Part shown: positions 14,791-43,428 of the stretch, piece after piece
How positions within the stretch are numbered: position 1 is the first letter of the stretch
How the letters are laid out: each line of letters begins with the position of its first letter
Source: an uncultured Clostridia bacterium
GTDB taxonomy: Bacteria; Bacillota; Clostridia; Christensenellales; UBA1242
Direction: 5' to 3'
Length of the DNA stretch: 51,866 bases
NCBI GenBank assembly: GCA_948442695.1
Contig: CAOJSF010000009.1
Coordinates: 1 to 51,866, forward strand
Position numbers and translations under genes: made by a program
The notes under the pieces: generated by a model
What the model was told of the DNA's origin: nothing
The model's database searches: none
The model's input: only the letters and a program-made list of their open reading frames with translations

Positions 14791-15735
14791 TTAAAAAGAA
14801 AAAGGCTCAATCTCATTTCGTGCTTCATATTCTTTGTTATCTAAATTTAATGCTTTTTTAAAATCAAAATCATTTTTAATCATTGTTATATAAAAATCCC
14901 TATCAAGTTTCGAATAACTAGGATCATTTTTAAAATGAATTCCATCTTTTTTAATCACAATTTTGTCTCTAAAACGAATCATTTGTTTTGGCGACATGAA
15001 AATTCTTCCACCAACATACTTGAGATTGCCAAAATCTTTTAAATCAGATTTTCTTAAGTTAAGATCACCCCAAATATATTCGACATTTCCTAAACTTGTG
15101 ATGGATGTTCTTTCCAAATCTAAAGATCCACCTACAAACCTAAGATCACCCAAACTTTCAATTTGTGACATTAAAAATCCTGCATCATTGCCTATATATT
15201 TGATTTTGCCTAAATCTTTTAATTCCGAAAAATCTGCACAAACACTACGGCCAACAAACTCAATGCTGTCAATCTTTTCTCCTTTATAATGATAAAGGCT
15301 TAAATCTCCGCCCACCTTTTTGAGATTACCAAAATTTTCTATTTTCATACCATATAAGTTTAGCGTTTTACCCACATACTCAAGATTGCCTAAGTCTACT
15401 AATCCTGTTTTTTCTACGAAAATTTCCCCATAAACATTTTTTAAACTTCCTAAACTAGTTACTTTACTTAATGAATCTACATAGATGTTTCCATATACAT
15501 TCTCAATATCAGTTATTTTTGACTTATTATAATTGACTAAATTAATATCTCCAAAAATATAAGCACTGGTAAGATTTTCATTAATTAGTGTTTTCCCATA
15601 TAAAGTATTATCACCATTCTTATTACATATATATATATCATCTTCCGAATATAATATTCCAGTTTCCTCATAAAGTTTCTTCGCTAAAAAACTTTTAAAT
15701 TCGTCAAGTTTCTCTGTTGGTATATTAATTTCCAT
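14791..15735 (-). CDS. Array paralog: about 8 repeats, long C-tail (314 aa)
   Basis: Last gene of block B. Starts MEINIPTEKLDEFKSFLAKK with GGAG 6 bases upstream. The N-cap is divergent: the usual DHYKYIFG is replaced by LTSAYIFGDI, and a further GNIYVDS/GEIFVEK pair precedes the standard repeats. One repeat (GGDLSLYHYKGEKIDS) is bulged. After the cap (FKNDPSYS) a 50-residue polar tail follows, the longest in the family. It lies 45 bases from the upstream paralog and ends at a terminator, so the pair forms one operon. Confidence 0.83.
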   Translation of the reverse strand: MEINIPTEKLDEFKSFLAKKLYEETGILYSEDDIYICNKNGDNTLYGKTLINENLTSAYIFGDINLVNYNKSKITDIENVYGNIYVDSLSKVTSLGSLKNVYGEIFVEKTGLVDLGNLEYVGKTLNLYGMKIENFGNLKKVGGDLSLYHYKGEKIDSIEFVGRSVCADFSELKDLGKIKYIGNDAGFLMSQIESLGDLRFVGGSLDLERTSITSLGNVEYIWGDLNLRKSDLKDFGNLKYVGGRIFMSPKQMIRFRDKIVIKKDGIHFKNDPSYSKLDRDFYITMIKNDFDFKKALNLDNKEYEARNEIEPFSF

Positions 15736-15780
15736 TTTATCTCCTATTCATCAAAATTTTTAATTAATACTTTTCCTTTT

Positions 15781-16398
15781 CTAATCATTGCATTTGCCAT
15801 CATTTTCATTTAAATATGTAGGATCGTTCCTGAAACACCAACCCTCTTTTTTTACATAATATACTTTGTCCGCAAAAAGTTTTTTATGCTCATCATTCAG
15901 CGTCAATGTCCCTTCAACATATCTTAAATTTCCTAGATCCTCAACAATCGAGCCCTTTAAATTTAAATCCCCTCCGACATATTCAAGATTGCCCAAACTT
16001 TTGACAACAGAGTTCTCGAAATCCGCATTTTTACTTATGCTTATAAGATTTCCTAAATCTGTCACTTTTGAAAAATCGAAGACAGCACTGCCACAAATAT
16101 ATTTCAAACTGCCCAAACTTTCAACGATAGAGTCAGTAAAAACAGCATTGCCAGCAATAAATTCCAAATCAGTAATCTTCAATTTTTTATATTCACCAAA
16201 ATTGACATTTGCAAAAGCATACTTAAATTTGTCATAAGTTTTTAAGAAATAATAGTCTATTGCAAAATAGTTGAATCTATAGCCATGATGAATATAAATG
16301 TCTTCAGGATTATAAATTCCCCCTGTCTCATCAATCAACTTGTTTGCAAAATACTCTTTAAATTTTTCATACTTATCTGGAGTTATATTAAATTGCAT
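15781..16398 (-). CDS. Array paralog: about 4 repeats, the shortest intact one (205 aa)
   Basis: Starts MQFNITPDKYEKFKEYFANK with DETGGIYNPEDIYI. Only four regular repeats lie between caps; the first three are of the A/F type (GNAVFTDS, GSAVFDFS, KNADFENS) and the last is of the L/L type (GGDLNLKGS), showing in miniature the N-to-C polarity of the family. C-cap GTLTLNDEHKKLFADKV, then FRNDPTYL. AGAGAGG lies upstream of ATG. A SigA-type promoter sits directly in front (16415-16443). This is probably the minimal functional size. Confidence 0.84.
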   Translation of the reverse strand: MQFNITPDKYEKFKEYFANKLIDETGGIYNPEDIYIHHGYRFNYFAIDYYFLKTYDKFKYAFANVNFGEYKKLKITDLEFIAGNAVFTDSIVESLGSLKYICGSAVFDFSKVTDLGNLISISKNADFENSVVKSLGNLEYVGGDLNLKGSIVEDLGNLRYVEGTLTLNDEHKKLFADKVYYVKKEGWCFRNDPTYLNENDGKCND

Positions 16399-16414
16399 AA
16401 TTTACCTCTCTTTA

Positions 16415-16443
16415 AGTTTACAACATCGTCCCTAAAATGTCAA
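16415..16443 (-). promoter_or_regulatory. SigA-type promoter within the array
   Basis: Minus strand TTGACA (16443-16438), 17-base spacer, TAAACT (16420-16415). It lies 17 bases before the ATG at 16398 and should drive the two-gene unit 15781/14791. Confidence 0.7.
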
Positions 16444-16549
16444 TATACTAAAAACTTACAACAACTTTTTTGTTATTTTAAATTTTATTTAACCTCTTCT
16501 TTCCAACAATTTTTCACAATATCAAAGCCTTCTAAAGAAAATGCGAAAA

Positions 16550-17699
16550 TTAAAAACTATTTTCTTCTTCTAAAGCCTCTATAAAATCTGTTTTATAATC
16601 GTCAATCCCACTATAAATATAATTAGTGTCATTATTAAAAAAATAACTATCACTTGCTTCATCATATCTTATTTTATCTGCAAACAATTTTGCCTGCTCT
16701 TCATCTAAAACAATTCTGCCACCAACATATTTTAAGTTGCCCAAATCTTTAATAGTTGAGCCTTTCAAAAATAAACCCCCGCCGATGTATTCTACTTTAC
16801 CTAGGCTTGCAATTTTTGAATTAGAAACATCAAAATATCCACCTACATATTCAAGATTATTTAAACTTCTTAAATGAGAGACTCCGTGCAAATCTAAAGA
16901 ACCTCTTACTATTCTGAGTTTACCTAAATCTTCAAGTTTTCTTTTATTAATATTAAGTGCGATAAAAAGGTCTCCTCCGACATATTCAAGATTAGATAAA
17001 GATTTCAATTCTTCATCTGCATAAAAGAAACCTCCTACATATTTAAGTTTGCCTAGATTTGTCACTTTGTTATCCGATCCAAAAGTAGATAAATCACCAC
17101 CTACATATTCAAGATTTTTTAAATCACTTATCTTAGATTTTCTAAATTCTACATTTCCGACTATAATTCTAAGTTCTCCTAAATCTTCAAGCAAACTGTT
17201 ATTGAAATTTCCATTCCCTCCGATTATCTGAAGATTTTTTAAACTTTTTATTTCTGAACCAATAAAGGTTGCATCGCCTCCTATGATTTTCAAATTGTTT
17301 ATCTTTCAAATTAGTATCACGGAATTGTGCATCGCCGCCTACAGTCGTCAATTTTCCCAAATCCTTAAGCACGCTATATCCTAAAAGCAAATCACCTCGA
17401 ACGTGTTTTATGCTTCCCAAACTTTTAAGTTCCTTATTTTCTTGAAAAAATAAATTTCCAGAAACAAACTCTAAATCAGCAACACTATCCTTATTATAAT
17501 TATGCAAATCTACATTCGCAAATATGTATCTGAATTTATCATCATTCTTGAGAAAGTAATAATTTACCTTATCAGTCGCATAATTATCAGCAATAAATAT
17601 ATTTTCTGGAGTATACAGTTTACCAGTCTCTTTGGTAAGACTAACAGCCAAATAATTTTTAAATTCTTCAAACCTTTCTGTAGGTATATCAAATTTCAT
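16550..17699 (-). pseudogene. Array paralog broken by one frameshift (about 380 codons)
   Basis: Two overlapping reading frames make one gene. The first runs from MKFDIPTERFEEFKNYL (ATG 17699, AAAGGA upstream) to RDTNLKD. The second continues with NNLKIIGGDATFIGSEIKSL to the C-cap (IVLDEEQAKLFADKI, FFNNDTNYI). The break is at about 17300, where one A stands in place of a codon (a net 2-base loss). Everything else is intact, so the lesion is recent, an assembly error, or a recoding site. The longer ORF upstream of 17699 is only a shadow of the next gene's end. About 12 repeats in all. Confidence 0.8.
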
Positions 17700-17739
17700 T
17701 TTTTTCCTTTTTTGATAAACGAATGAATTTTTTTTGCTA

Positions 17740-18915
17740 TTATGCCAACTCATCCATTTCATCTTCTCTTTCTTCGTCAAGAATTGCAGCAAAATCAGAT
17801 CTTTGCTTACAAACATAATTTGGATCATTATTAAAGTAAATATCTCCATTTTTAACAATAATCTTATCCTTAAACAATCTCTTTTGGAGATCAGTCAAAT
17901 AAAGTTTTCCACCCACAAACTTAAGATTGTCAATATTTTTGATTTTAGTATTCATTAAATCAAGATCGCCACCAACATACTCTACATTTTCCAAACTCTT
18001 AAGTTTGGTATTTGTCAAAGACAAATTTCCACCAACAGTCTCAAGTTTGCCTAAATCTTTGACCTGTGAATCACTTAAAATTGCATTTCCTCCGACATAT
18101 TCAAGATTGTCAAGACCCATTAAGTTTGTTTCTGCAACCATGAAATCTCCTCCTATATATTGTAAACTATCAAGATGTTCAATACTGCAATGATTATCAA
18201 TGTGGAGATCTTTTCCTATATATTTTAAATTATCTAAACCATTAAGTTTTCTACAGGCAAAAAACACATCGCCCTTTATTACCTTTAAATTAGATAAAGT
18301 TTTAATATTTGAGAAAAAACCACTATAAAAATCACCACCTACAATCTTAAGATTTCCTAAATCTTCAATTTTTGAAGTTTCTGTATCTAAATCACCATCA
18401 ATATATTCAATGCTTCCCAAACTAGAACCCTGAAAATTTCTAAAAAAAGCATTTCCACCTATTCTCTTTAGTTTTTTAAACTCTATATTAGATTCAAAAA
18501 ACTTTGCATTTCCACCTATAGTTTTAAGAGAATCCATAAAACAAGTGGAATATGTGATGTCAACATCTCCACTTATTGTCTCAAGAGAATTTAAATGACA
18601 TTTTAAACTTTCAAAATAAACATCACCACATATATGCCTTAAAGACTGCATATCATTTAAAAGGGTTCGCTTGCCATTTGGCTTATAGATTATATTGCCA
18701 TAGACAAATTCCAAATCATTCAAAGTCTTTTGTCCATAATTTGTAATATCTATATTGCCAAAAATATAGCGATATTTATCACCTTTAGTATAATTATGGT
18801 GCTTATCACATACCAAAATATCTTCAGGCAAAAAATGTTCGCCTGTCTCTTGCGTCAACTTTCTCGATAGAAAAAGTTTAAAATCTTCATAATTCTCCGG
18901 AGTTAAATCTCTCAT
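17740..18915 (-). CDS. Array paralog: about 13 repeats (391 aa)
   Basis: Start placed at ATG 18915 (MRDLTPENYEDFKLFL) with AAAGGA 8 bases upstream; the longer in-frame extension to 18981 lies over the preceding pseudogene and is not family-like. N-cap LTQETGEHFLPEDILV, DKYRYIFGNI. The early repeats are irregular (GDVDITYSTCFMDS, GDFYSGFFSNIKT), while the last four are textbook. The final joint is KNIDNLKFVGG instead of the usual DLG. The tail is acidic (EEREDEMDE). Confidence 0.83.
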   Translation of the reverse strand: MRDLTPENYEDFKLFLSRKLTQETGEHFLPEDILVCDKHHNYTKGDKYRYIFGNIDITNYGQKTLNDLEFVYGNIIYKPNGKRTLLNDMQSLRHICGDVYFESLKCHLNSLETISGDVDITYSTCFMDSLKTIGGNAKFFESNIEFKKLKRIGGNAFFRNFQGSSLGSIEYIDGDLDTETSKIEDLGNLKIVGGDFYSGFFSNIKTLSNLKVIKGDVFFACRKLNGLDNLKYIGKDLHIDNHCSIEHLDSLQYIGGDFMVAETNLMGLDNLEYVGGNAILSDSQVKDLGKLETVGGNLSLTNTKLKSLENVEYVGGDLDLMNTKIKNIDNLKFVGGKLYLTDLQKRLFKDKIIVKNGDIYFNNDPNYVCKQRSDFAAILDEEREDEMDELA

Positions 18916-18962
18916 CTTTTCATCCTTTTTTCTATTCCTTAAATGTTTATAAGTTTTTTTAA

Positions 18963-19981
18963 TCAGCACATACTTGAACAATACTCTGCATAATCTGAGT
19001 TTTTTCCAGTAATTCCATGCTTTTTCATATACTCTATATCATTATTAAAATAAAATTTCCCATCTTTCATATGAATCTTATCTTTAAATAATCTTTTCTG
19101 CAGTGCATTTAAAAAAATCTCTCCGCCTACATATCAAAGACTATCAATTTTTATTAGCATGGATTCTCTTAAGTGTAAGTCGCCATCAACACGTTCAAGT
19201 TTGCCTAAATTTGTCACCCTCGATCTATCAAAATATGCATCACCACCGATGGATTTAAGATTGTCTAAATACTTTAGTTTTGAATAGGCAAATAAGGCAA
19301 ACCCACCAACAGATTCAAGAACTCCCAGCCTGACAACTTTTAAATTAGCAAGATCCAAAAAGCCACCAACCTTTCTTAGTTTGTCCAGATTTTTCATCTT
19401 TGTATTGTTAAACGATGCATCTCCACCAACTGTCTCAAGTTCTCCAAAGTCTCGAATTTCAGAACCTTGCATCTCGACAATGCCACCTATGGACTTAAGA
19501 TTGCCAAACTTACAATGCTAAACCACTTAAAATTAGCATTCCAGCCAATTCTTTCAAGATTTCCCAAAGTCTTCAAATGAGCCTGACCTCTAAAGTCTGC
19601 CCGCTCCTAAATAAATTTAAGATTGCCTAAACTCTTTATGAAAGAGTCTTTAAAATCTACTCCCATCACTACTTGTAAACTACCTAAATCTCGCGCTTGT
19701 GAATTAGAAAAATCAACATCATTATAAAAACATTTAATGTCGCTTACCAGACTTTTGTTGTAATTGTAAAAATACACAGTACCAAAAATGTATTTATAAT
19801 GGTCATTTTCGGTGATATAATATCTTTTAAAGTATGCATTCCCATCTCTATCACAAATCCTATCTCTATTACAAATTAAGATATCTTCAGGAAAATAAGA
19901 CCTACCCGTCTCTAAAGTAAGTTTATTTGCCATAAACTATTTGAATTCTTCATGCTTATCTTGTGGTATGTTGAAGTCCAT
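18963..19981 (-). pseudogene. Decayed array paralog with three stops and a frameshift
   Basis: The original start is ATG 19981 (MDFNIPQDKHEEFK, AGGAG upstream). Codon 15 is TAG at 19937-19939, where the family has Glu or Lys. Reading resumes as FMANKLTLETGRSYFPEDIL. A second TAG follows at 19607-19609 (LKFI*ERADF), a one-base loss near 19517, and TGA in the final repeat (DSL*YVGGEIF). The C-cap and tail remain readable to TGA 18963. The N-half is closely similar to the gene at 21372-22388 (YYITENDHYKYIFG), so it arose by duplication of that gene and then decayed. Confidence 0.85.
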
Positions 19982-20136
19982 AATTCTCCTCTTTTAAATC
20001 AACATTTTTTCCATATGTTGATGTTTCACTCTAAAAACATATTCTGTATATACTTTTTTATTTTAAATTTAATAAAAATTATTTTTTTATGTTGATTTAC
20101 ATGACTTCTATTCAAATCTAAACTAAAAATCTTTTA

Positions 20137-21291
20137 TTAAAGATAAAAGTCTTTTTCTTCTTTTAATATTTTCTCAAAGTTTTCCTTATAATTTCCTTCA
20201 CCAGTCAATAAAGGATTTACATAATTTGAATTGTTTATTAGATAAAACCGACCATCCATTATTTTAATTCTATCTTTAAAAAGTTCTTTTTGCGAATCAT
20301 TTAAATATATCTCGCCACCCACATATTGAAGATTGCCGAGATCTGTCACATTACTTTTGTCAAGATACAAATCTCCACCGATGTATTCAACATTACCTAA
20401 GGTTTTGACTTGTGTATGTGCTAAATTAAGGAAATCACCTACATATATCAAATCATTTAAACTTGATAAATTTTTACAATTTGATAAGTCCATACCACCT
20501 TCTACGACTTTCAACTTCCCCAAATCTTCAATTCCAACACCATGATAATAAATATTAGATTTCAAAAATTTAATAGTGAGATTACCACCCAAATATTCAA
20601 GATTAGATAATGATTCTAATCTATCATTAGCCTCCAAATCTCCGCCGATATATTTAAGTTTGCCTAGACTTTCTAAATTTTCATTTAAAAAAACGATAAA
20701 GTTTCTACCAACGTATTCTAGATTTTTCAAATCGTTTACCAGAGAATTATTAAAAATCGCATCACCGCCTATTATCTTAAGATCACCCAAATCTTTTACA
20801 AAACTATTTGTAAAGTTAGCGTAACCACCTATACTTTTAAGTCCTTTTAATCTTTCTATATCAGAAAATGAAAAGTCAGCATAGCCTCCTATTGTCTTAA
20901 GATCACCCAAATCTTTTATACAACTATTTGTAAAGTTAGCGTTACCTCCGATTGTATTTAAATTCCCCAAATCTTTTAATGTATAAGATGATGTAAAACA
21001 ACCTTTGATATGGGTCAAACTACCTAGACTTTCTATACTTGAACCAACAAAAGAAACATCGCCATAGACATATTCAATATCAGTTATTGTCCGCTTTTCA
21101 TATTTATCAAATAGTAAATCTGCAAAAATATATTTGAATTTATCGCTTGATTCAGGGTGACATAGACTTCCATATTTTTTATAAATAAAAATATCTTCTG
21201 ATTCGTAAATTTTGCCAGTTGCCTCTGTCAATTTCTTTGCAAAATAGATTTTAAATTCTTCAGATCTTTCTGTAGGTATATCAAATTCCAT
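20137..21291 (-). CDS. Array paralog: about 12 repeats (384 aa)
   Basis: Starts MEFDIPTERSEEFKIYFAKK, very like the frameshifted gene at 17699. A cluster of A/F-type repeats (GGNANFTNS, GGYADFSFS, GGYANFTNS, GGDAIFNNS) is followed by irregular ones, including a 26-residue unit containing KFLKSNIYYHGVG. Repeats at about 20775-20826 and 20895-20946 are nearly identical in DNA and lie exactly 120 bases apart, i.e. two units were copied together. C-cap GGEIYLNDSQKELFKDRI, then YLINNSNYV. GGAG is present before ATG. Confidence 0.84.
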   Translation of the reverse strand: MEFDIPTERSEEFKIYFAKKLTEATGKIYESEDIFIYKKYGSLCHPESSDKFKYIFADLLFDKYEKRTITDIEYVYGDVSFVGSSIESLGSLTHIKGCFTSSYTLKDLGNLNTIGGNANFTNSCIKDLGDLKTIGGYADFSFSDIERLKGLKSIGGYANFTNSFVKDLGDLKIIGGDAIFNNSLVNDLKNLEYVGRNFIVFLNENLESLGKLKYIGGDLEANDRLESLSNLEYLGGNLTIKFLKSNIYYHGVGIEDLGKLKVVEGGMDLSNCKNLSSLNDLIYVGDFLNLAHTQVKTLGNVEYIGGDLYLDKSNVTDLGNLQYVGGEIYLNDSQKELFKDRIKIMDGRFYLINNSNYVNPLLTGEGNYKENFEKILKEEKDFYL

Positions 21292-21371
21292 TTTTTCTCC
21301 TTCACTTTGTTGTCTTTTCTTTTAATCAAACGACTTTTACATTAAGCATTTTCCTCTGCCAAATTATCTTA

Positions 21372-22388: not shown

Positions 22389-22603
22389 TTTTGCCCTCAA
22401 AACTTATTTTCTATTTTTTATTGATTTATAAAATATCATTTTTAAAATCCATATGTTTCTTCATTATATCTTATAATTGTATCATTTTTAATTGTAATGT
22501 TTTTTGGATAGAAAATTAAACAATATAAATAAGTATCTATTAAATATTAAATTAAACTTTGAATATCTCTTTAAAAACAAACTATCATAAAAATCAATTA
22601 TTT

Positions 22604-23341
22604 TTAATATAAATCTAAATCATCATAATCACTTTCTGTTTTTGAATTATTTATAAAATAAACATTTCCATTTTGTTTAAAGATTTTGCCTTCAAACAAA
22701 CCTAAAAGATTTGGACTAATTTCAATCCTGCCACCTACATAGTTTAGTTTTCCTAAATCATATATATGAGAATAACCATAAATTGACCCGTCACCTTGAA
22801 AATATAAATTCCCTTCCACTTTTTCTAGTTTATTTAAACTGATTACATCGCTTTCCCACAAATAAAAACTTCCACCTATTAAAACAAGTGCTCCTAAATT
22901 GTCGGCTTCCGATTGAGACAAAAACAAATCTCTTTTGATGGTTTTTAAACTTCCAAAATTTTTAATTTTACAATTATAAAGTTCAATTCCACCGGCATAT
23001 TCAAGATTATTAAATGAATAAACAACAGAATCCTTCATTGAAATGAGGCCTTCCACAAATTTCAATTTTTCAAACTTTTTAATTTTAGAATCCCGAAAAT
23101 CTGCATTCCCCCAAATAAACTCAACATCGCTTAAAACATCACTGTCATAATTTTTGAAACTTACATGTCCAAAAATACATTTATAGTGATTATTTTTTGT
23201 CATATAAAATACATTTCTTGAGAAGTCTTTACTCACATAAATATCTTTTGGCAAATAAGTCTCTCCAGTTTCTTCAGAGAGTTTTTTAGCCATATATTTC
23301 TTAAAAGCATTTTGTTTTTCAGGTTTAATATCAAAAATCAT
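22604..23341 (-). CDS. Array paralog: about 6 repeats (245 aa)
   Basis: Starts MIFDIKPEKQNAFKKYMAKK with AGAGGTGAGGA just upstream. The joint residues are unusual (KKFEKL, YSFNNL, KNFGSL): Phe replaces Leu three times. One unit carries an 8-residue insertion (QGDGSIYGYSHIYD). The first solenoid turn, VEFIWGNADF, is shared with the gene at 24429-25232, so these two are close relatives. C-cap GGRIEISPNLLGLFEGKIF is divergent, with no QK pair. The 215-base spacer downstream has no clear promoter. Confidence 0.82.
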   Translation of the reverse strand: MIFDIKPEKQNAFKKYMAKKLSEETGETYLPKDIYVSKDFSRNVFYMTKNNHYKCIFGHVSFKNYDSDVLSDVEFIWGNADFRDSKIKKFEKLKFVEGLISMKDSVVYSFNNLEYAGGIELYNCKIKNFGSLKTIKRDLFLSQSEADNLGALVLIGGSFYLWESDVISLNKLEKVEGNLYFQGDGSIYGYSHIYDLGKLNYVGGRIEISPNLLGLFEGKIFKQNGNVYFINNSKTESDYDDLDLY

Positions 23342-25232: not shown

Positions 25233-25268
25233 ATTTCTCTCCCATAAATTTAAAATAGAATCTCTTTA

Positions 25269-26237
25269 TTAAAAAATTTCTTCTTTCTCTGAAGAGGCAT
25301 TATCCTCTTTTAGATAATAAGCCCCAACACCTTTGTATTTTTGCCAAAGCCTATCTTTGAAGAGTTCTTTCTGCCTGTCATTTAAAACAATCTCGCCCCC
25401 TAAATGCTTTAAGTTTCCTAAATCTTCAACTTGTGATTTTGCTAAATAAAGATTACCTCCAACACTTTCAAGATTTCCCAAACTTTTCACCTTAGAATCG
25501 ACGAATTCAATATCGCCACCAACGGTCTTAAGCCTCCCCAAATCTTCAAGATCAGGTCCTAAAGAGAGATTGTATCCCACCTTTTCTAAATCTCCCAAAG
25601 TTTTAAGTTTTGTAATAAACAAAGAAAGAGCACCCTCAACTATCTTCAACTTGCCAAAACTTTCAAGAGGCGGAGGTGCAAAAAGAATATTTCCAACATA
25701 TTCCAGGTTTCCTAGGTCAACAATATTACTGTACTCAAGAAATGCGGTCCCATCAATTTTTTTAATTTTACATAGACTTTTAAGATTTTTGCATGAAGTT
25801 ATGCGAAGTTCTCCACCAACTGATTCAATTTCTCCTAAATTGTCGATAGGTAATGTTCTAATTTAAGATTTCTTCCTATTATTTTAAGTTTACCAAAATC
25901 ATTAAACTTCGTAAAAATAGTATCGCTATAAAAAGTAGCACTTCCTTGAACAGCATATAAATTTTTAATTTTTTCAAGAGATGTCATTTCAAAATTAAAA
26001 TAAACACTACCATAAACAAATTCTAGATCTTCATTTATTTTGCCTTTATAATCTTTAAAGTAAACATCACCAAAAATATATTTATAATGATCGCTTTCTT
26101 TAATCGAATAAAAGGCCCAAATGAATTTTTTCACAAATATAAATATCATTAGAAGTATATAAATTCCCTGTCTCTTGAGTAAGTTTGTCTGCCATATATG
26201 CTTTAAAATCTTCAAACTCTTCAGGCGTAATTCTCAT
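25269..26237 (-). pseudogene. Array paralog with two frameshifts
   Basis: The gene begins at ATG 26237 (MRITPEEFEDFKAYMADK, GGAG upstream). The frame is lost in a run of six A (26126-26131 on the plus strand shows six T) after IYICEK, resumes one frame over as FIWAFYSIKESDHYKYIFGDV, and is lost again near 25850 (NLKLEH then TLPIDNLGEIESVGG). The last frame runs to a regular C-cap (GGEIVLNDRQKELFKDRL). Both gaps to neighbours are 36 bases, so it lies in an operon. No nonsense substitutions were seen; only indels separate it from a full protein. Confidence 0.8.
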
Positions 26238-26273
26238 AATTTGCTCCTTTCATATTTTCACAAAAATATCAAT

Positions 26274-27107: not shown

Positions 27108-27135
27108 AAAAAAATCCACATCACTTTGTGGATAA
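27108..27135 (-). terminator. Terminator within the array
   Basis: Stem ATCCACA/TGTGGAT (27114-27120 with 27127-27133), loop TCACTT, and a run of T on the minus strand after it. It follows the gene at 27331-28623 by about 200 bases. Confidence 0.75.
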
Positions 27136-27330: not shown

Positions 27331-28623
27331 TTAAATCAAATACTCTTCATTTTCGTCATCTTTAAATTTAAAGCCATCCCCATCCTTAATGATTTTCTTT
27401 TTAAATAATTTTTCTTGCCAGTCATCCATATATATTTTTCCTCTAACATATCTTAATGCCCCTAAATCGGCTATGTTGGAATCTTCAATATGCAAGTCAC
27501 CTTTTATTATTTCAATACTTCCCAGACTCTCGGTTTCTGCTCCTATAAAATAGGTATCCCCGCCGATAACTTTAAGATTTTTTATCTCCTTAATCAAAGA
27601 CTGTCCAAAATCTGCTTCACCACCTATAGTTTCAATTTGTCCTAAATCTTTTACATGGCAAAAAAACAAATAAGCATTGCCTCCGATTGATTTCAGTTTT
27701 CCAAAACTTTCAAGATAATTATTGGCATATAAGTCTTCACCTATATGCTCCAAATTCTCAAGACTCTTAATTTCTGAATCTTGTATATTAAGGCTTCCGC
27801 CAACCTCTTTCAATTTACCCAGACTTTCAACATCCAGTCCCGCATCAAAATCTTTTCCGATTCTCTCTAAAACACCTAGATCGGTAATTTTTGTTTCAGT
27901 CAAATCCAAACTACCACCGATATAATTGATTTTCCCTAAGTTTTTGATTTTATTTCTTATAAAAAGATTTCCTCCAACTCTTTCAAGATCACCTAGGTCT
28001 TCAACTGATGAATCTGTTAAATCAACCCAGCCCCCTACTTCTTTAAGTTTATTAAGACTTTTAATAGGACAATCTGCAATCATCAATTCTTCTCCTATAA
28101 CTTTCAGTTCACCTAAATCTTCTATACTTGAATCTTGTATTCCAACATATCCATTTATATTTTCAATTTTGCCTAAGTCTTTTACTCCTTTACAACCATG
28201 AATACGCAAATCACCATCAATACTTTCCAAATCACCAAAAGAAGAAATATTACATTCCTTAAACAAAACATCACCTGAAAACCTTTTTAAATTCCCAAAA
28301 CTTTTCACTTGAGAATTTTTAAATTTTATATTTCCATTAATTTCACACAAACTATCTAAGTTTTCTACGATGCAATGTGCAAAATCTGCATCACCATAAA
28401 TATATTCAAGTTCTTTTATGTTATCTAAAGTATTCAAATCAAATTTCTTAAAAGCAACATTGCCAAATATGTATTTATAATGGTCGTCTTCAGTAAAAAA
28501 CAAATCTTCACAGACACAAATATCTTCAAGTTTATATTCAAGCCCTGTTTCACTTGAAAGTTTTTTTGAAATATAAAATTTAAATCTTTCATAATCTTCA
28601 GGTTTTATGTCAAATTTCATCAT
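27331..28623 (-). CDS. Array paralog: about 16 repeats (430 aa)
   Basis: Start taken at the tandem ATGATG (28623), with AGGAG 5 bases upstream; the longer ORF upstream reads through the ribosome site. N-cap MMKFDIKPEDYERFKFYI, SSETGLEYKLEDICV, DDHYKYIFGNV. One of the two longest solenoids. Several turns lack a residue or two (GKDFDAGLDVES, GEDLYANNYLES), which should kink the stack. DLG and SL joints alternate over most of the length. C-cap VRGKIYMDDWQEKLFKKKI, then FKDDENEEY. Its 5' region is a copy of the one at 30056-30138. Confidence 0.84.
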   Translation of the reverse strand: MMKFDIKPEDYERFKFYISKKLSSETGLEYKLEDICVCEDLFFTEDDHYKYIFGNVAFKKFDLNTLDNIKELEYIYGDADFAHCIVENLDSLCEINGNIKFKNSQVKSFGNLKRFSGDVLFKECNISSFGDLESIDGDLRIHGCKGVKDLGKIENINGYVGIQDSSIEDLGELKVIGEELMIADCPIKSLNKLKEVGGWVDLTDSSVEDLGDLERVGGNLFIRNKIKNLGKINYIGGSLDLTETKITDLGVLERIGKDFDAGLDVESLGKLKEVGGSLNIQDSEIKSLENLEHIGEDLYANNYLESFGKLKSIGGNAYLFFCHVKDLGQIETIGGEADFGQSLIKEIKNLKVIGGDTYFIGAETESLGSIEIIKGDLHIEDSNIADLGALRYVRGKIYMDDWQEKLFKKKIIKDGDGFKFKDDENEEYLI

Positions 28624-28703
28624 CTTTCTCCTATTTGCATAATTCAAAATTTTATTCAAATATTGTTATATCATTAAAATAAATATACAACATAAAAAAT
28701 CAA
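28621..28703. repeat. Duplicated 5' leader (copy 1)
   Basis: The start codons, ribosome site and about 80 bases of upstream sequence match 30056-30138 with only one or two differences. Both copies precede the two longest array genes. Confidence 0.8.
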
Positions 28704-35773: not shown

Positions 35774-35801
35774 ATGATAATTTTTACACTTCATTTAAAA
35801 T

Positions 35802-36798
35802 TTATTGCTCGTCTTCGTTTAAAAATTCATCTAATTCAAAAGTTTCATCATCTTTACCACAAAGAAAACTTGTATCATTTTGAAAATAAAGTTTGCCGTT
35901 TTTACACAAAACTCTGTCGCTTATATATTCTTTCTGCACATCATCCAACAAAATCTCGCCACCCACATATTTGAGTTTGCCTAGATCAGTTATCTTAGAA
36001 TTTAGTAAGATTAAATCTCCACCCACATACTCAAAATTGCCTAAGTCTTCAACATTTGAATAATTAAATGGAGCACTTCCATAAATATCCTTAAGTCCGC
36101 CTAAAGACTTGATTGTTGAAATTTGAAAATCAGCATTTCCGCCGATAGATTTTAAATTGCCTAAATCCTCAACAGCAGATTGAGTAAAACTGCAACTTCC
36201 ACCGATAGCAGTCAAATTTTTAAGACTTGAAATTTTAGACATTCTAAATGCTGCATCCCCTAAAATAACTTTAAGTTCACCTAGGTCTTCGATTTCTGAG
36301 AGAAAAAAGATTGCATCCCCTCCGATTGTTTTAAGATTATTTAAATTCTGCAATTTTGATAGAGAGAAATTTACATTTCCGTCAAGTATAGCAAGATCTC
36401 CTAGGTCAATTACTTGAGACTGATAAAAACTCACATTGCATTGTATACTCTTTAGCGTCCCCAAACTTTCCAATTTTGAATTTTCAAATGTTAAATCATC
36501 ACATACTATGTAGATAATTCCGTCGATATCAGTTATATTAGACCCAGAAAAATTCACATTGCCCCTGACAAAGTTGACATTTGATAACGAACATGGTTTA
36601 TCAGAATATTTAGACAAATCAACATCGCCAAAAATATATTTATGATTTGGCTTCAATTTGTATCCTGTATCACTTTCATATGCTTTTTTACCACCAAAAT
36701 TTCTTCTGGCTTATAATCATCCCCAGTCGTTTTAGTCAATTTTTTAGCCATATAAATTTTAAAGTCATCTTCTCTGCCTTCTTCTATATTTAATCCAT
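35802..36798 (-). pseudogene. Array paralog with two indels in the N-cap (about 10 repeats)
   Basis: The intact part from LKPNHKYIFGDV to the C-cap (GGEILLDDVQKEYISDRV) is a good solenoid. The N-cap is readable upstream but split: ATG 36798 is followed by a one-base loss in codon 3, then LNIEEGREDDFKIYMAKK with LTKTTGDDYKPEEILV, then a run of six A (36684-36689) where seven would restore frame. The ATG at 36656 would give a protein without cap and has no ribosome site. The cloverleaf element lies about 95 bases upstream. Confidence 0.8.
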
Positions 36799-36891
36799 AT
36801 TTTCTCCTTTTGAAAAATTAAAGATATAATTTAATTATCAGAAGTCTTGTCAAGCAGTCACGAAGACTATTTGAGCAATACTGACGGATTT

Positions 36892-36980
36892 ATATACTAA
36901 GTGGTGGACTGCAAAGCAGTCAAATTCGCAGAATTTTTAAAAGTTTTATGGTCATAAAACTTTTACACCACTTAGTATAT
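36892..36980. repeat. 89-nt perfect four-way cloverleaf element
   Basis: Outer stem of 15 bp (36892-36906 with 36966-36980, ATATACTAAGTGGTG against its complement). Inside, three hairpins follow with almost no spacing: GACTGC-AAA-GCAGTC (36907-36921), AAATTC-GCA-GAATTT (36922-36936), one unpaired T (36937), and a 12-13 bp hairpin TAAAAGTTTTATG/CATAAAACTTTTA (36938-36965). Outside the three loops only one base is unpaired. It has no tRNA features and no T-run after it. It may be a small mobile palindromic element, a protein-binding cruciform or a structured RNA; which one cannot be told from one copy. Confidence 0.85.
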
Positions 36981-37040
36981 TTTATCCTCAAGATTTCAAA
37001 CTTTGACATTATAAATCTATAAAAATAAAAATTATTAGAT

Positions 37041-37838: not shown

Positions 37839-37875
37839 GCACCCTCTCCATTGTTATAAAAATAATTCACCATTA

Positions 37876-38417
37876 TCACTTTTTGCTTTTCAAAAACATT
37901 GTTCTGGGCATTTTTAAATAATACTTCCCATTAGTATATAAAATCTTTTCTTCGAATAGGACTTTTTGCAAACTATTTAAAACAAGACTGCCCCCCCGAT
38001 TTCTTTCAATTTGCCTAAATTTTTTATATCTGACTTCCTAAAGTCTGCACATCCCCCCTATAGAAACAAGTTCCCCTAGCCTTCTAAGAGAAGAACTTTT
38101 TTAAAATCAGCATAACTCATTATATATTTTAAATTATGCAAATCTTTAAGATGGCAAATATCGAAAAGTTTAAAATTCCCACATATCAATTCTATATCAT
38201 TTAAAGTTTCGTTTTTATAATTGTCAAGCCACACATCACCAAAAACAAATTTATAGTGATCATTGTCATTTAAAGATAATACCTGCCCTACAAAAATATC
38301 CTCTGGTAAATATGTCTTTCCAGTCTCATCACTGATTTTTTTCGATAAAAAAACTTTGAAGTCTTCTGCATCTTCTTTTATATTATGATATTTTCGATTG
38401 TTTATAATATCTGGCAT
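37876..38417 (-). pseudogene. Array paralog with three homopolymer frameshifts
   Basis: Opens MPDIINNRKYHNIKEDAEDFKV at ATG 38417 (AGGA 9 bases upstream; the ATG at 38429 touches the ribosome site). N-cap SDETGKTYLPEDIFV, NDHYKFVFGDV. The frame is lost in an A run near 38102 (six where seven fit), in a run of six G at 38053-38058 (five fit) and in a run of seven G at 37991-37997 (six fit). Correcting the three gives SLRRLGELVSIGG, CADFRKSDIKNLGKLKEIGG and a C-cap (SLVLNSLQKVLFEEKI). About three repeats, a short member. Confidence 0.82.
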
Positions 38418-38467
38418 AATAACAACCATTCCTAGCCCCCTATTATTTTTATATATGTTTTGACATT

Positions 38468-39391
38468 TTAATTATTAACATCAAATTCTTCCATTTCGTC
38501 ATGCTTTAAACTATAAGCACTGTCATTATTGAAATATATATGCCCAGCCTCTTCATGAATTTTGTCTGCAAACAATCTCTTTTGCTTATCATCTAAGAAG
38601 ATTTCTCCACCAACAAACTTCAAATCACCTAAGTCCGTTAAAACTGAATTTCGCAATTCCAAATTTCCTTCAATTACTTCAATCTTGCCCAGACTTTTAA
38701 GTTTTGAATATGATAAATCCAACACTCCTCCGATTGCCTTAAGCCTGCCTGTATCTTCCACTCCAGAGTCGCATAAGTTGAGCCCACCTCCGATTGACTC
38801 AAGTTTTGCCAAACTGACAATTCTTGAATTCATAAAGGAAACAGTTCCACCGATTGATTTAAGTTCTCCCAAATCAATTATGTCAGAGCAATAAAAATTT
38901 GCCTCTCCTCCTATTTTACTCAAGTTTTTAAGGCTTCTCATTTTTCCGTATGAGAAATCGGCACTTCCTCCGATAAATTTAAGACAGCCCAAATCTCTTA
39001 CTTTTGACCATTCAAAATTCACCCTGCCTCCGATCAATCGAAGTTTACCCAAACTTTCCACCTGAGAATTTTCAAATATTGCACTATTACTTATGACTTC
39101 CAAATTTTTCAATGTTTTTATTTGAGACCTTCTAAACACCGCACTGCCATAAATATATTCAACATCATCTAGGTCTTCTTTTTTATAATTTTCAAAAAAA
39201 GAATTTCCGAATAAATACTTAAAATGCTCATCCTCAGCAAGATGAATTTCAGGCGAATGGGTAATTCTATTTATACAAGTTGCAACACAAATATCCTCTG
39301 GCGTATATTCCCTGCCAGTGGCTTTTTTCAATTTATAAGCAATATATATTTTAAAATCTTTAATCTTGTCTGGGTCTATAATAAAACTCAC
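38468..39391 (-). CDS. Array paralog: about 9 repeats with strict S/D alternation (307 aa)
   Basis: Starts MSFIIDPDKIKDFKIYIAYK with KKATGREYTPEDICV and DEHFKYLFGNS. Joint residues between units read KT, ES, RD, RS, ID, VS, ED, KS, TD, an almost perfect alternation of SL and DLG joints. All units are 20 residues. C-cap GGEIFLDDKQKRLFADKI, then FNNDSAYS. The ribosome site is weak (AGGTGAAAAAGTG region). Good template for modelling the family. Confidence 0.85.
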   Translation of the reverse strand: MSFIIDPDKIKDFKIYIAYKLKKATGREYTPEDICVATCINRITHSPEIHLAEDEHFKYLFGNSFFENYKKEDLDDVEYIYGSAVFRRSQIKTLKNLEVISNSAIFENSQVESLGKLRLIGGRVNFEWSKVRDLGCLKFIGGSADFSYGKMRSLKNLSKIGGEANFYCSDIIDLGELKSIGGTVSFMNSRIVSLAKLESIGGGLNLCDSGVEDTGRLKAIGGVLDLSYSKLKSLGKIEVIEGNLELRNSVLTDLGDLKFVGGEIFLDDKQKRLFADKIHEEAGHIYFNNDSAYSLKHDEMEEFDVNN

Positions 39392-39552
39392 TTTTTCACC
39401 TGCTTTCTTAAGTATTTAAATGCTTTTCTATTTCTATATTTAAATTTTTATAAGAAATTAATTCAATTTTAAATATATTTTTTATCCTATTTAAATTCAA
39501 AATGATTTTGATAAATCATATTTTAATCAAATTTTAATTTTATTGTGTCCTT

Positions 39553-40596
39553 TCAACTTAAAGCCTCTTCATATCTTTGTCTTTTGAATGTTTTGTTTGA
39601 GTAGTATTGACTATCATTTCTAAAATAGAAACTTCCATTTTTCTTAAAAATTTTATCTTCAAATTTCCCTGCCTGCTCTTCATCTACAAAATAGATACAT
39701 CCTCGCACATATTTAAGATTGCCAAAATCCTCAAGTTCAGTTGATAGATAAATATCTCCACCAACATACTCAACATTTCCCAAACTTTTTATTGAAGTAT
39801 TTCTTAAATTAAGACTTCCTCCAACTTCTTTAAGATTGCCTAAATCAACAACTTTTGAATATCTTAAATCCATTTCTTTCCCAACATTTTCAAGACAACC
39901 TAAATCTGAAACAAGCGAGCGATTAAGACTTACACTGCCACCTACGAATTTAATATTTTTTAAACTCTCAACCGCGGCATGTCTCAAATCCAAATCTCCA
40001 ACAATCTTTTCCAGAATCCCCATATCTCCAACTATGCTGAAGCCAAAAGAAGCGTTTCCCTCAATTAATTTGAGATTGCCTAAGTCTCCCAAAGAACAAT
40101 TAAAAAAAATTCCATTTCCGCCTATCTTTTCTAGATTTTTCAAACTCCCTATTCTAGAACCACTGAAATCTGCATTTTTACCTATTGAGACAAGATTCCC
40201 TAAATTCCGGATTTCAATATCATGAAAAAAAGCATTGCCTCCGATTGACTCAAGGCAACCCAGCCCATTTACTATCTTCCCTTTCAAAAACAGATTTCCT
40301 CCGACATGCCTGAGACTACCCAAATTTCTTACTTTAGAACTTTTGAAATCGGCATCTCCATAAATATATTCGGCATCTCCCACAACTAAACGAGCATAAT
40401 TTTTAAAATGAACATTTCCAAAGAGATATTTAAAATGGTCGCTTTCTTTCATAAAAAAATTTTCAAAAGAATTATTTTCTCTTTTGCCTACAAAAATATC
40501 GTCAGATGTATAATTATCACCTGTCTCTTTAGTCAGTTTATACGCCAAATACTTTTTAAAGTCATCCACACTTTCTGTTTTTATATCAAAATTCAT
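39553..40596 (-). CDS. Array paralog: about 11 repeats (347 aa)
   Basis: Starts MNFDIKTESVDDFKKYLAYK with TKETGDNYTSDDIFV and SDHFKYLFGNV. AGGACAAGAAG lies upstream. The mid-solenoid units are His/Gly-rich (GGNAFFHDIEIRN, GDLDLRHAAVES). One C-proximal unit is short (GDIYLSTELED). The C-cap is unusual: VRGCIYFVDEEQAGKFEDKIF, then FRNDSQYY and a basic tail (TFKRQRYEEAL). 88 bases separate it from the upstream gene. Confidence 0.84.
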   Translation of the reverse strand: MNFDIKTESVDDFKKYLAYKLTKETGDNYTSDDIFVGKRENNSFENFFMKESDHFKYLFGNVHFKNYARLVVGDAEYIYGDADFKSSKVRNLGSLRHVGGNLFLKGKIVNGLGCLESIGGNAFFHDIEIRNLGNLVSIGKNADFSGSRIGSLKNLEKIGGNGIFFNCSLGDLGNLKLIEGNASFGFSIVGDMGILEKIVGDLDLRHAAVESLKNIKFVGGSVSLNRSLVSDLGCLENVGKEMDLRYSKVVDLGNLKEVGGSLNLRNTSIKSLGNVEYVGGDIYLSTELEDFGNLKYVRGCIYFVDEEQAGKFEDKIFKKNGSFYFRNDSQYYSNKTFKRQRYEEALS

Positions 40597-40684
40597 CTTC
40601 TTGTCCTCTTTTGCATCTAAATTTATTTTTAAAACATTTAGATTTTTAATTTTTTAATCAATGAAAAATTTTCACTTTTTACCT

Positions 40685-41581
40685 TTATAAACATTGCTCA
40701 TAGTCTTTGACAGCACTTAGGTCATTTTTGAATCGATACCCCAGACCATCTTTATAAATTCTATCTTTAAAAAGTTCTTTCTGCTCTTCATTCAAAAATA
40801 TTTTTCCACCTACATACTTAAGATTGCCTAAATCTTCAACTCCACTATTCTCCAAAAACAAATCTCCACCAACATATTCGAGTTTTGACAATGTTTTTAT
40901 TGCCGAATCTCCGGCATATAGGCTTTCTCCAACATATCTGAGATTTCCCAAATCTTCAACTTGAGAATCTTTTAAAATTAAACTTTCACCTACATACTCA
41001 AGATTTTTTAAACTTTTGATTTTTGAAAAACTGAAGATAGCCCAACCACCTATTTTTTTGAGATTTTTTAAATCTTCTATTCCCGAGTTTCCAAAACTAG
41101 CATCCTCTCTAATTATTTCAAGATTGCCCAAATCTTCAATGTTTGCATCAATAAACCTTGCACATCCACCTATTTTTTTGAGATTTTTTAAACTTTTGAT
41201 TTTCGAGAAACTAAAGGAAGCATTTCCACCTATTGTTTCTAAAGCACCTAAATCTTCAATTTGTGAATTATCAAATATTGCATCGCCTGCAATATGTTTC
41301 AACTTTACTAAACTTTTTGCTTTCGAGTTTTTGAAACCTACATCTCCATAAACAAACTCAACATTGTCAATTTCTTCACTTCCGGATGCAATAAACTTGA
41401 CATTCCCAAAGATATATCTATATTCTGTGTCATCTGGAATCACGATATAGCCATCGTTATCTTCTTTTGTTTGAACAAAAATATATTCAGGAAAATATTG
41501 CTGACCAGTTTCTCTGGTAAGTTTTTCTGACATGAAATATTTAAATTCTTCTTCTTTGCCATTTTTTATTTCAATTTTCAT
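40685..41581 (-). CDS. Array paralog: about 9 repeats with 120-nt internal duplication (298 aa)
   Basis: Starts MKIEIKNGKEEEFKYFMSEK; N-cap TRETGQQYFPEYIFV, DDTEYRYIFGNV. FSFSKIKSLKNL occurs twice, each next to a KKIGG turn, because bases around 41047 and 41167 repeat exactly 120 apart (two units). C-cap GGKIFLNEEQKELFKDRIY, then FKNDLSAV. AGGAG lies 6 bases before ATG. Confidence 0.85.
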   Translation of the reverse strand: MKIEIKNGKEEEFKYFMSEKLTRETGQQYFPEYIFVQTKEDNDGYIVIPDDTEYRYIFGNVKFIASGSEEIDNVEFVYGDVGFKNSKAKSLVKLKHIAGDAIFDNSQIEDLGALETIGGNASFSFSKIKSLKNLKKIGGCARFIDANIEDLGNLEIIREDASFGNSGIEDLKNLKKIGGWAIFSFSKIKSLKNLEYVGESLILKDSQVEDLGNLRYVGESLYAGDSAIKTLSKLEYVGGDLFLENSGVEDLGNLKYVGGKIFLNEEQKELFKDRIYKDGLGYRFKNDLSAVKDYEQCL

Positions 41582-41642
41582 TCATGCTCCTAATTTTTAA
41601 GCCACAATTTTTAAATAAATTTAATAATAAAAACAAATATTT

Positions 41643-42485
41643 TTATTTCAACTCATTCTCTTCTTCCAAAACATAATTTGGGTCGTTTATAAAATAAACT
41701 TTTTTATCCACTATCTTTATTTTATCAGCAAACAATATTTTTTGAGGGAAAGACATATATATCTGCCCTTTCACATATTTTAAGTTTCCCAAATCTGTCA
41801 CATTTGAATCTAAATATAGATTCCCGCCAACATATTCAATAGAGCCCAAACTTGAGACTTTTGACTGTCTTGTACCTAAACTTCCACCAACAACTTTAAG
41901 ATTTTTAAAGTCTTTCACCTCGGAAGAACCCATATTAAGCGTCCCGCCAACTCGTTCTAATTTACCAAGGTCTGAGACTTGAGAGCCTACAAGATTTAAT
42001 TCACCTTCCACACTTTCAAGATTGTTTAAACTTAAAAGGTTTTTTGTATATGAAAAATCAGCATATCCTCCGATTGTCTTAAGGTTCCCTAAATTTTTTA
42101 TAAGTGATCTTCCAAAATAGGCATCTCCTCCGATTGATTCCAAATCTCCTAAATCCTTGATTACAGTGTCATTAAATAATGCAGTCCCTTGTATATGTCT
42201 TAAATTTGAAATTTTCTCAACATTAGAAAATCTAAAATCTGCAAATCCATGAACAAACTCAACACTGTCAAGTTCTTTGCCTCTATAAAATCTAAACAAC
42301 ATATCACAAAAAAAATACTTGTGAAGATCACCATCCTCATACTCAAGAGGCTCATAAACATTTTGATTTTCATCAAAAACAAAGATATCTTTCTCTCTAT
42401 ATTCAATTCCTGTTTCTTTAGAGAGTTTGCTCGCCATGAATTTTTTAAATTCTTTGTCTTGACCTGCGTCTAATTTCAAATTCAT
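41643..42485 (-). CDS. Array paralog: about 8 repeats (280 aa)
   Basis: Start at ATG 42485 (MNLKLDAGQDKEFKKFMASK) because GGAG lies 7 bases upstream; the ATG at 42497 is part of that site. N-cap SKETGIEYREKDIFV, HKYFFCDML, where the usual YIFGD is altered. Units include GGDAYFGRS, GGYADFSYT and GGSLGTRQS. C-cap VKGQIYMSFPQKILFADKI, then FINDPNYV. Confidence 0.84.
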   Translation of the reverse strand: MNLKLDAGQDKEFKKFMASKLSKETGIEYREKDIFVFDENQNVYEPLEYEDGDLHKYFFCDMLFRFYRGKELDSVEFVHGFADFRFSNVEKISNLRHIQGTALFNDTVIKDLGDLESIGGDAYFGRSLIKNLGNLKTIGGYADFSYTKNLLSLNNLESVEGELNLVGSQVSDLGKLERVGGTLNMGSSEVKDFKNLKVVGGSLGTRQSKVSSLGSIEYVGGNLYLDSNVTDLGNLKYVKGQIYMSFPQKILFADKIKIVDKKVYFINDPNYVLEEENELK

Positions 42486-42582
42486 TTTTTTCTCCATATA
42501 TTATTTTTTTTATTTTCTTCGCCTTGATAAATTTATAATTAAAATCTTCAAAATCCTTCTTAAATCAATAAGAGTATTTTAT

Positions 42583-43428
42583 CTATAATTCTTTGTCATC
42601 ATCTACCAAAACATAATTAGGGTCATTTCGGAAATGATAAAAACCTTTTTCATCTTTATAAATTTTGTCTTTAAATAGTTCTTTTTGTTTGTTACTTAAA
42701 TAAATTTTTCTACCAACATACTTTAGATTCCCTAGATCTTCGACCTTTGAATTAATCAAATCTAAATTATCGCCGACATATTCTAAATTTTTTAAACTTG
42801 TAATATCTGAATTTTTGAACATGGCATTACCACCGACTATTTTAAGTTCTCCAAGATCATCAACTAAAGCCCCTGCAAAATTTGCATTACCGACTATTTT
42901 TTTAAGTTTCCCTAAATTTGTAATATACGAATATCCAAAATTAGTGTTTCCTCCAATCACATGAAGATTTCCTAAATTTGACAACTTTGCACCATTTAAA
43001 TAAAGATTTCCACCTACCGTCTGAAGATTTCCTAAATCTTTTATATTTTCTCCTAGATATAGATCTTCTCCTACATATCGAAGATTACCTAAACTTTCAA
43101 TTTGCAAACTATCATAGAAAGAGGCACAACCACAAACAGTTTTTAGACTTCCTAGATTTGTCAGTTTAGAACCATCAAACATCGCATCTCCATAGATGTA
43201 TTCAACATTTTTCAAATGACCTTTATAATCCTCAAAAAAAGTATTGCTAAAAATATATTTATATGGGATTTCGTCTGTTGGATAATAATTTTTTAAATTA
43301 TCATGCATATCTTTATCATTGACAAAAATATCTTCTGCAATATAACTTTTTCCAGTCTCTTTAGTTAGTTTTCGAGCAAGATATTCTTTAAAATCACCAT
43401 ATCTTTCTTTTTCAATTTCAAACTTCAT
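42583..43428 (-). CDS. Array paralog, first gene of block B: about 8 repeats (281 aa)
   Basis: Starts MKFEIEKERYGDFKEYLARK with TKETGKSYIAEDIFV and IPYKYIFSNT. AGAGGAAAAA precedes ATG. Gly/Asn-rich turns (GGNLYLNGA, GGNTNFGYS, VGNANFAGA). C-cap VGRKIYLSNKQKELFKDKI, then FRNDPNYV. It has the promoter at 43444-43472 and follows the terminator of the SipL-like gene, so it is the transcriptional front of block B. Confidence 0.85.
   Translation of the reverse strand: MKFEIEKERYGDFKEYLARKLTKETGKSYIAEDIFVNDKDMHDNLKNYYPTDEIPYKYIFSNTFFEDYKGHLKNVEYIYGDAMFDGSKLTNLGSLKTVCGCASFYDSLQIESLGNLRYVGEDLYLGENIKDLGNLQTVGGNLYLNGAKLSNLGNLHVIGGNTNFGYSYITNLGKLKKIVGNANFAGALVDDLGELKIVGGNAMFKNSDITSLKNLEYVGDNLDLINSKVEDLGNLKYVGRKIYLSNKQKELFKDKIYKDEKGFYHFRNDPNYVLVDDDKEL

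What the first reader, a model, noticed from the sequence alone, without database searches (positions are those of the whole stretch)
14791..43428. A tandem array of 31 paralogous repeat proteins of unknown function
Seen: 27 consecutive same-strand genes here plus 4 at 1-2363, all with the same N-cap, a variable number (4-16) of 20-residue solenoid repeats and the same C-cap. No other gene type lies between them. None has a signal peptide or membrane helix. Known: bacterial LRR-like solenoids usually bind proteins. Inference: this is a diversifying cytosolic binding repertoire, with caps held constant and the repeat surface varied. Possible roles include recognition of phage or plasmid proteins, decoys, or regulation of a shared partner through the N-cap. 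It takes up more than half of the window, a large cost for a cell to maintain.
Basis: partly seen in the sequence, partly recalled or inferred. Interest (0 to 1): 0.88.

Follow-up and report, generated by a model that had tools for sequence, protein, structure and literature searches.

The report
Array of diversified LRR-like binding proteins
One small bacterial genome carries 27 related genes in a row (and four more nearby) that are absent from the same two places in its closest held relative; their products are predicted to be capped, spring-shaped proteins that likely bind other proteins and may be exported into partner cells, which would matter as a so far undescribed way for genome-reduced, probably gut-dwelling bacteria to act on their neighbours.

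Summary
The window is one whole contig of a 1.32-Mb genome. It holds 27 copies with both caps between 14791 and 43428 on one strand, plus three complete copies and one contig-edge fragment at 1-2363; five of the 27 are broken. More copies lie on contigs C13 and C2. AlphaFold2 gives a confident capped beta-solenoid, most like an LRR protein (pLDDT 93). The N-cap family is confined to this genome among 112 of its genus; both array sites are empty in the closest held relative. Paralogs share 28-61% identity, share exchanged blocks and decay: birth-and-death evolution. A 'binding repertoire' is plausible. 'Caps constant, surface diversified' is only weakly supported: the N-cap diverges nearly as much as the body, synonymous sites are near saturation, and control solenoids vary much alike. 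My preferred mechanism, inferred and untested: binding effectors handed by a near-universal VirB4/VirD4-type machine to partner cells. VirD4 matches in 107 of 112 genus genomes; a PF03432 relaxase clears its cut-off in 4 of 112. The array's C-terminal tails are unusually acidic; those of the genus's DUF4116 proteins are so more weakly. The main rival, nearly as likely, is an intracellular immunity array.

The parts
14791..43428 (-). Main array: 27 tandem paralogs (22 open, 5 broken), N-cap + 20-residue repeats + C-cap + acidic tail
1..2363 (-). Second array between ppdK (on C13) and rpe: N-cap fragment 2-55 at the contig edge, complete copies 58-732, 783-1574, 1626-2363; C13 ends in further copies (that C13 and C9 join here is inferred from gene order in G010)
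38468..39391 (-). Copy whose structure was predicted: helix 7-25 N-cap, beta-solenoid, C-cap helix 268-273 and hairpin, low-confidence tail 303-307; pLDDT 93.3
16550..17699 (-). Broken copy (N-cap and C-terminal part in different frames)
19014..19981 (-). Broken copy (internal stops)
25269..26240 (-). Broken copy (N-cap split over two frames)
35802..36796 (-). Broken copy (N-cap split over two frames)
37912..38429 (-). Broken copy (several stops; C-cap fragment 37912-37995)
43444..43472 (-). Promoter-like site just before the first gene of the main array (consensus match only; 141 such sites in the stretch against 103 expected)
43487..43508 (-). Terminator-like hairpin between sipL and the array
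14738..14767 (-). Terminator-like hairpin after the last array gene
27114..27133 (-). Terminator-like hairpin inside the array, after gene 27331-28659; may split the transcript
43531..45084 (-). sipL-like (SPOCS) gene, right border of the array; 88-89% identical in relative G010, where spoIIR-like and sipL are adjacent
13810..14346 (-). spoIIR-like gene, left border of the array
46896..48908 (-). VirD4-type coupling protein, matched in 107 of 112 genus genomes; candidate exporter component (inferred link)

Best explanation
The run of 27 same-strand genes (22 of them open) and its four left-hand relatives encode one family of capped 20-residue-repeat proteins, predicted to fold as LRR-like beta-solenoids, that likely form a fast-turning repertoire of protein-binding proteins and would be passed to partner cells by the genus's VirB4/VirD4-type machine. 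Shown by calls: the anatomy, a confident predicted fold, the empty sites in relative G010, near-identical blocks shared by otherwise distant copies, decay, the acidic tails, and the near-universal VirD4. Inferred: transcription as one or two long operons, binding by the solenoid face, recognition of the acidic tail by the coupling ATPase, and delivery to another cell.
Against: No secretion is shown, and no T4SS part other than VirB4/VirD4 was identified or sought. NF045971 (VirB4) matches are below the family cut-off in 12 of 13 genus genomes, and matches to it occur in 6 of 14 control genomes, 5 of them below cut-off, so that model alone does not prove a VirB4. One relaxase family only was tested, and matches to it at E <= 0.001 occur in 15 of 112, so DNA transfer remains possible. 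The tail test was chosen after seeing the tails; paralogs are not independent; some DUF4116 tails are neutral or basic (up to +6); acidic tails also suit plain solubility. The repeat face is not shown to be under diversifying selection. Closely packed same-strand genes fit an immunity array at least as well. G010 keeps VirD4 and VirB4 without any array, so the machine does not depend on these proteins.
Confidence: 0.36

Rival explanations
1. Intracellular immunity array: each copy stays in the cytosol and neutralises a toxin or phage protein that arrives from outside, as in the polyimmunity loci of polymorphic toxin systems.
For: Tandem paralogous immunity genes are an established arrangement, and LRR-repeat immunity proteins are listed in heterogeneous polyimmunity loci (PMC3482391, passages read). 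Same-strand, closely packed genes suit simultaneous expression; no strongly hydrophobic segment; birth-and-death pattern.
Against: No immunity family at E <= 0.001 in Pfam, NCBIfam or PHROGs for the four copies scanned and no PADLOC match at E <= 0.1 for the five scanned. No toxin gene recognised by eye among the window's ORFs. LXG toxins matched in 0 of 61 genomes and EssC over its cut-off in 0 of 21, though incoming toxins could come from other species.
Confidence: 0.31
2. The copies are intracellular scaffolds or regulators that share one partner through the N-cap; expansion reflects dosage or neutral duplication with little binding diversity.
For: The N-cap is a clear common element (A2). 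Broken copies and repeat-number variation are expected under loose constraint. The variability pattern is close to that of ordinary solenoids.
Against: Median paralog identity is 39%, far more divergence than dosage needs; restriction to one of 112 genus genomes argues against a core regulatory role.
Confidence: 0.2
3. A horizontally acquired or selfish block, part of a mobile element, with no benefit to the cell.
For: Absent at both sites in relative G010. Related repeats occur in phage-like proteins and predicted viral structures. P0045 shows that the family exists in at least one other source.
Against: No integrase or transposase recognised by eye among the window's ORFs (not all were scanned), no tRNA, no inverted match within the array stretches compared. 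No relative encoded at the 140 places in the viral contigs that matched the one usable pattern, and only weak repeat-level matches in 3 phage and 4 plasmid records.
Confidence: 0.08
4. A silent-cassette store for antigenic variation.
For: Shared near-identical blocks between copies exist.
Against: Open copies are complete genes, all on one strand; 0 of 101 local matches are inverted; no surface signal or anchor was seen.
Confidence: 0.05

Closest known systems
Receptor L domain / bacterial LRR solenoids (Pfam PF01030; PDB 8z5u LRR protein)
   Same: PF01030 over its cut-off in 3 of 4 copies scanned; best structural and best PDB sequence match is an LRR protein
PEX/NEX families of Parachlamydiaceae (PMC4209131; start of abstract, passages)
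   Same: Reduced-genome symbionts with lineage-specific expansions by birth-and-death, tandem arrays, pseudogenes and variable repeat numbers; the most dramatic tandem array named there has 13 members
   Different: No F-box or BTB box found in four copies here; 27 copies in a row; clostridial-type genome; VirB4/VirD4 rather than the type III system used in that paper's assays
Polyimmunity loci (PMC3482391, passages)
   Same: Tandem paralogous cytosolic proteins, some with LRRs
   Different: One homogeneous family, no known Imm domain, no toxin neighbour recognised
The 861-residue protein of genus member G014 (L040:3956-6541)
   Same: Same repeats, and the array's C-cap (E 1.7e-10 among 46 sequences), tail net charge -7
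   Different: Single gene; long N-terminal part with a HELLHHYE stretch (reads like an ImmA/IrrE-type peptidase, recalled) and a WCTK region (reads like PcfJ-type, recalled), neither with a Pfam match; the array N-cap is not found there
P0045 (251 aa, other public contig of 38,301 bp)
   Same: Both caps (N-cap 3.7e-30, C-cap 6.2e-16); 53% identical over the N-cap region
   Different: Known as one protein only; its contig could not be fetched

Membership tests
LRR / Receptor L domain | Pfam PF01030 score over curated cut-off | tested here: met
   3 of 4 copies scanned are over 21.8 bits (33.4, 22.1, 30.4); 22604-23341 has no match
LRR / Receptor L domain | LRR-type solenoid fold | tested here: met
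T4SS effectors | Genome encodes VirB4 and VirD4 | tested here: met
   VirD4 at 46896-48908 and VirB4-like 895-aa ORF on C2, with Walker A motif in both; the NCBIfam models are just below cut-off for VirD4 (248.3 of 250 bits) and well below for VirB4
T4SS effectors | Machine not explained by conjugation | tested here: inconclusive
   PF03432 relaxase over cut-off in 4 of 112, at E <= 0.001 in 15 of 112, none in G000; other relaxase families not tested
T4SS effectors | C-terminal acidic, E-block-like signal | tested here: inconclusive
   Tails clearly more acidic than background; in Legionella such a motif is reported at the C-terminus (PMC11602083, passages); no motif classifier was run here
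T4SS effectors | Translocation into another cell | not testable with these tools
   needs a reporter assay
Polyimmunity loci | Tandem paralogous cytosolic genes | tested here: met
Polyimmunity loci | Known immunity domain or cognate toxin nearby | tested here: not met
   no Imm family at E <= 0.001 (four copies scanned); no toxin recognised by eye in the window; LXG 0 of 61
PEX/NEX families | F-box or BTB box | tested here: not met
   no such Pfam match at E <= 1 in four copies
Known anti-phage systems (PADLOC) | match to a PADLOC model | tested here: not met
   0 matches at E <= 0.1 for five copies
Antigenic-variation loci | inverted repeats or silent partial cassettes | tested here: not met
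   0 of 101 matches inverted; open copies are complete genes

The most novel reading that the evidence does not exclude
A genus of genome-reduced clostridia carries a near-universal, relaxase-poor VirB4/VirD4 machine with a giant surface protein, used to inject acidic-tailed repeat proteins into partner cells; in this one species a new capped-solenoid effector family has grown to 36 N-cap-bearing loci, 27 of them in a single row.
Probability: 0.26. Interest if true: 0.85.

Novelty: new variant of a known kind. Interest (0 to 1): 0.6.

Why it matters
It is a long homogeneous run of LRR-like genes in a genome of only 1.3 Mb, placed at two sites that are empty in the closest held relative. If the export model holds, the genus would offer a system for protein delivery by sporulation-gene-bearing, genome-reduced clostridia; if the immunity model holds, it would be a large single-family immunity array. 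Both make direct, testable predictions, and some 30 natural variants on one scaffold would be useful for studying solenoid binding specificity.

Tried and rejected
Diversifying selection by repeat position: pN is highest at positions 14, 12, 17, 19 and 15 (31 pairs at 45% identity or more), but pS is near saturation and 12 solenoids from other lineages and from G014 show a similar entropy profile, so I do not claim it. The array units are, however, less alike within a protein (0.33 against 0.45).

N-cap hits outside the genome: G194, G298 and G359 (E 5e-4 to 1e-3 in 396 genomes) lie in reading frames that look like a glycogen phosphorylase and two aminotransferases (recognised by eye); G443 lies between unrelated genes. 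I treat them as chance. An apparent likeness of the N-cap to the region before the solenoid in G014, P0015 and P0023 was not borne out by the HMM.

DUF4116 tails: my first count (15 proteins, mean -2.8) sorted the ORFs by a phmmer search that missed seven ORFs listed. Recounted by place: 21 ORFs, mean -2.1, against +0.43 (p 0.003) and +0.35 (p 0.0002). Because this support is weaker than first written, I lowered the export reading from 0.38 to 0.36 and the novel case from 0.28 to 0.26.
Full report
What is there. The window is the whole of contig C9 of genome G000 (1,319,201 bp, 29 contigs, 96.9% complete). HMMs made from the caps find, on the minus strand only, 27 loci with both caps between 14791 and 43428, three complete copies at 58-2363 and an N-cap fragment at the contig edge. 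Twenty-two of the 27 are open; five are broken by frameshift or stops. Beyond the window, C13 ends in the same family (one complete copy and a C-terminal piece at its edge) and C2:145081-147861 holds a further cluster. Counting N-caps gives 31 on C9, one on C13 and four on C2, 36 in all, some broken or partial.

Where it comes from. The N-cap model matches 2 of 112 genomes of the genus at E <= 0.01, and I take the second as chance; in 396 genomes of the order it matches four including G000, the other three being weak matches inside reading frames that look like ordinary enzymes. In G010, the closest held relative by VirD4 identity among 112 (91%) and by sipL among 51 (89%), gene order is the same but both sites are empty: ppdK is followed by rpe, and the spoIIR-like gene by sipL, with 79 bp where G000 has about 29 kb. 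The main site is also empty in G018, G008, G012 and G004. No integrase or transposase was recognised by eye, there is no tRNA, and no inverted match within the array stretches. Outside the genus the repeats, without a recognisable N-cap, occur in proteins of very different build, including ones with a WCTK region and ones with an endonuclease-like end. One other public protein, P0045, has both caps. Genus member G014 has one 861-residue protein with the same repeats and C-cap.

How it changes. Pairwise identity among 29 copies is 28-61%, median 39%. There are 101 local DNA matches within and between copies, all direct; one is 97.6% over 125 bp, and 228 bp at 88% link copy 40685-41581 with the copy on C13. 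The 14 closest of 406 pairs carry pN 0.15-0.41 at pS 0.34-0.73, while ten G000/G010 orthologs carry pN 0.055-0.18 at pS 0.54-0.70. So the copies change protein sequence faster for a given, partly saturated, silent divergence. This does not separate relaxed from diversifying selection. The N-cap is not much more constant than the body (mean pN 0.35 and 0.41), and exposed repeat positions vary much as they do in control solenoids.

Transcription (inferred). A terminator-like hairpin lies between sipL and the array (43487-43508), a promoter-like site before the first gene (43472-43444), a hairpin after the last (14767-14738) and one between genes inside (27133-27114); four further minus-strand hairpins fall elsewhere in the array, and promoter-like sites are many, only moderately above the shuffles. 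Gaps between genes are 33-373 bp. One or two long operons is the simplest reading.

A possible exporter. The window's 46896-48908 is a VirD4-type ATPase, over the Pfam cut-offs, matched in 107 of 112 genus genomes, 70 of 72 of the good ones, a few only as fragments. A VirB4-like match occurs in all 13 genus genomes, below the family cut-off in 12; matches to that model also occur in 6 of 14 control genomes (one over cut-off), so the assignment leans on Pfam (TraG P-loop 69.7 bits, AAA_10 40.6 bits, both over cut-off) and on its sequence conservation (62-93% identity in four relatives). In the five loci read it is followed by a protein of more than 3,000 residues that by eye begins like a lipoprotein where its start could be seen. 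A PF03432 relaxase is over its cut-off in 4 of 112, matches at E <= 0.001 in 15 of 112 and is absent from G000; other relaxases were not sought. A reduced-genome family with sporulation genes and a suspected partner-dependent life, UBA1242 with genus Onthoplasma, has been described (PMC12306168, whole text read); G000 fits that description but was not identified.

The tails. The last 15 residues of 29 array proteins average net -2.9, 23 of 29 at -2 or lower; 44 other ORFs of this genome average +0.7, 11 related solenoids of other lineages 0.0 and internal windows of the array itself -0.5. Twenty-one DUF4116 ORFs, an unrelated repeat family of the genus (one of the 21 from outgroup G068), average -2.1 with a range from -8 to +6, against +0.43 for 37 other ORFs on the same loci and +0.35 for 100 ORFs of relatives (which corrects). 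In Legionella, C-terminal acidic E-block motifs are reported for a number of type IV effectors, though their receptor is disputed (PMC11602083, passages). I looked for this only after seeing the tails, and the copies are not independent.

Reading. Three things are firm: a capped solenoid family without a database name for its N-cap, its absence from two matching sites in the closest held relative, and its birth-and-death turnover. That the proteins bind other proteins follows from the fold class and is likely. Who they bind is open. I prefer partner-directed export (0.36) because of the VirB4/VirD4 pair, the tails, and the precedent of PEX/NEX expansions in Parachlamydiaceae (PMC4209131, passages). 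The immunity-array rival (0.31) is nearly as good: tandem arrays and LRR immunity proteins are known (PMC3482391, passages), and a set of closely packed same-strand genes suits it. Against it, no immunity domain, toxin neighbour, LXG toxin or over-cut-off EssC was found.

Noticed in passing
window 46896-48908; L107:9947-12634; L108, L134, L135, L136: A near-universal VirD4-type gene in a genome-reduced genus (matched in 107 of 112 genomes), and a VirB4-like gene next to a >3000-residue, fast-diverging, lipoprotein-like protein in 5 of 5 loci read, with PF03432 relaxases rare.
   Followed up: partly
window 10081-11556 (+); L114-L133: DUF4116 repeat proteins are patchily abundant in the genus (matches in 15 of 41 genomes searched, G000 included) and tend to acidic C-terminal tails; the window's copy ends with net charge -6.
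   Followed up: partly
L038:10475-11422 and 11553-12875 (C13): Two adjacent proteins of another repeat type (about 33 residues by eye, SKDPxWNYxFA) with no Pfam family over its cut-off; a homolog in G010 (63% identical).
   Followed up: no
L040:3956-6541 and 3270-3794 (G014): 861-aa protein with a HELLHHYE stretch, a WCTK region and the array's repeats and C-cap, next to a shorter relative of its N-terminus; homologs of its N-terminal part in G056 and G009.
   Followed up: partly
window 49251-49547 and 49650-51233: BspA-type LRR_5 proteins, one with an N-terminal hydrophobic segment (by eye), beside the VirD4 gene; a second LRR class in the same contig.
   Followed up: no
P0002, P0004, P0005: The same 20-residue repeats fused to a C-terminal region that reads like a Vsr-type or other PD-(D/E)XK endonuclease (by eye; for P0002 no Pfam match below E 0.2, the other two not scanned).
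   Followed up: no
window 11693-14346 and 43531-45084: ypeB, sleB-like, spoIIR and sipL form one sporulation gene cluster in the relatives read; the main array splits it in G000.
   Followed up: partly
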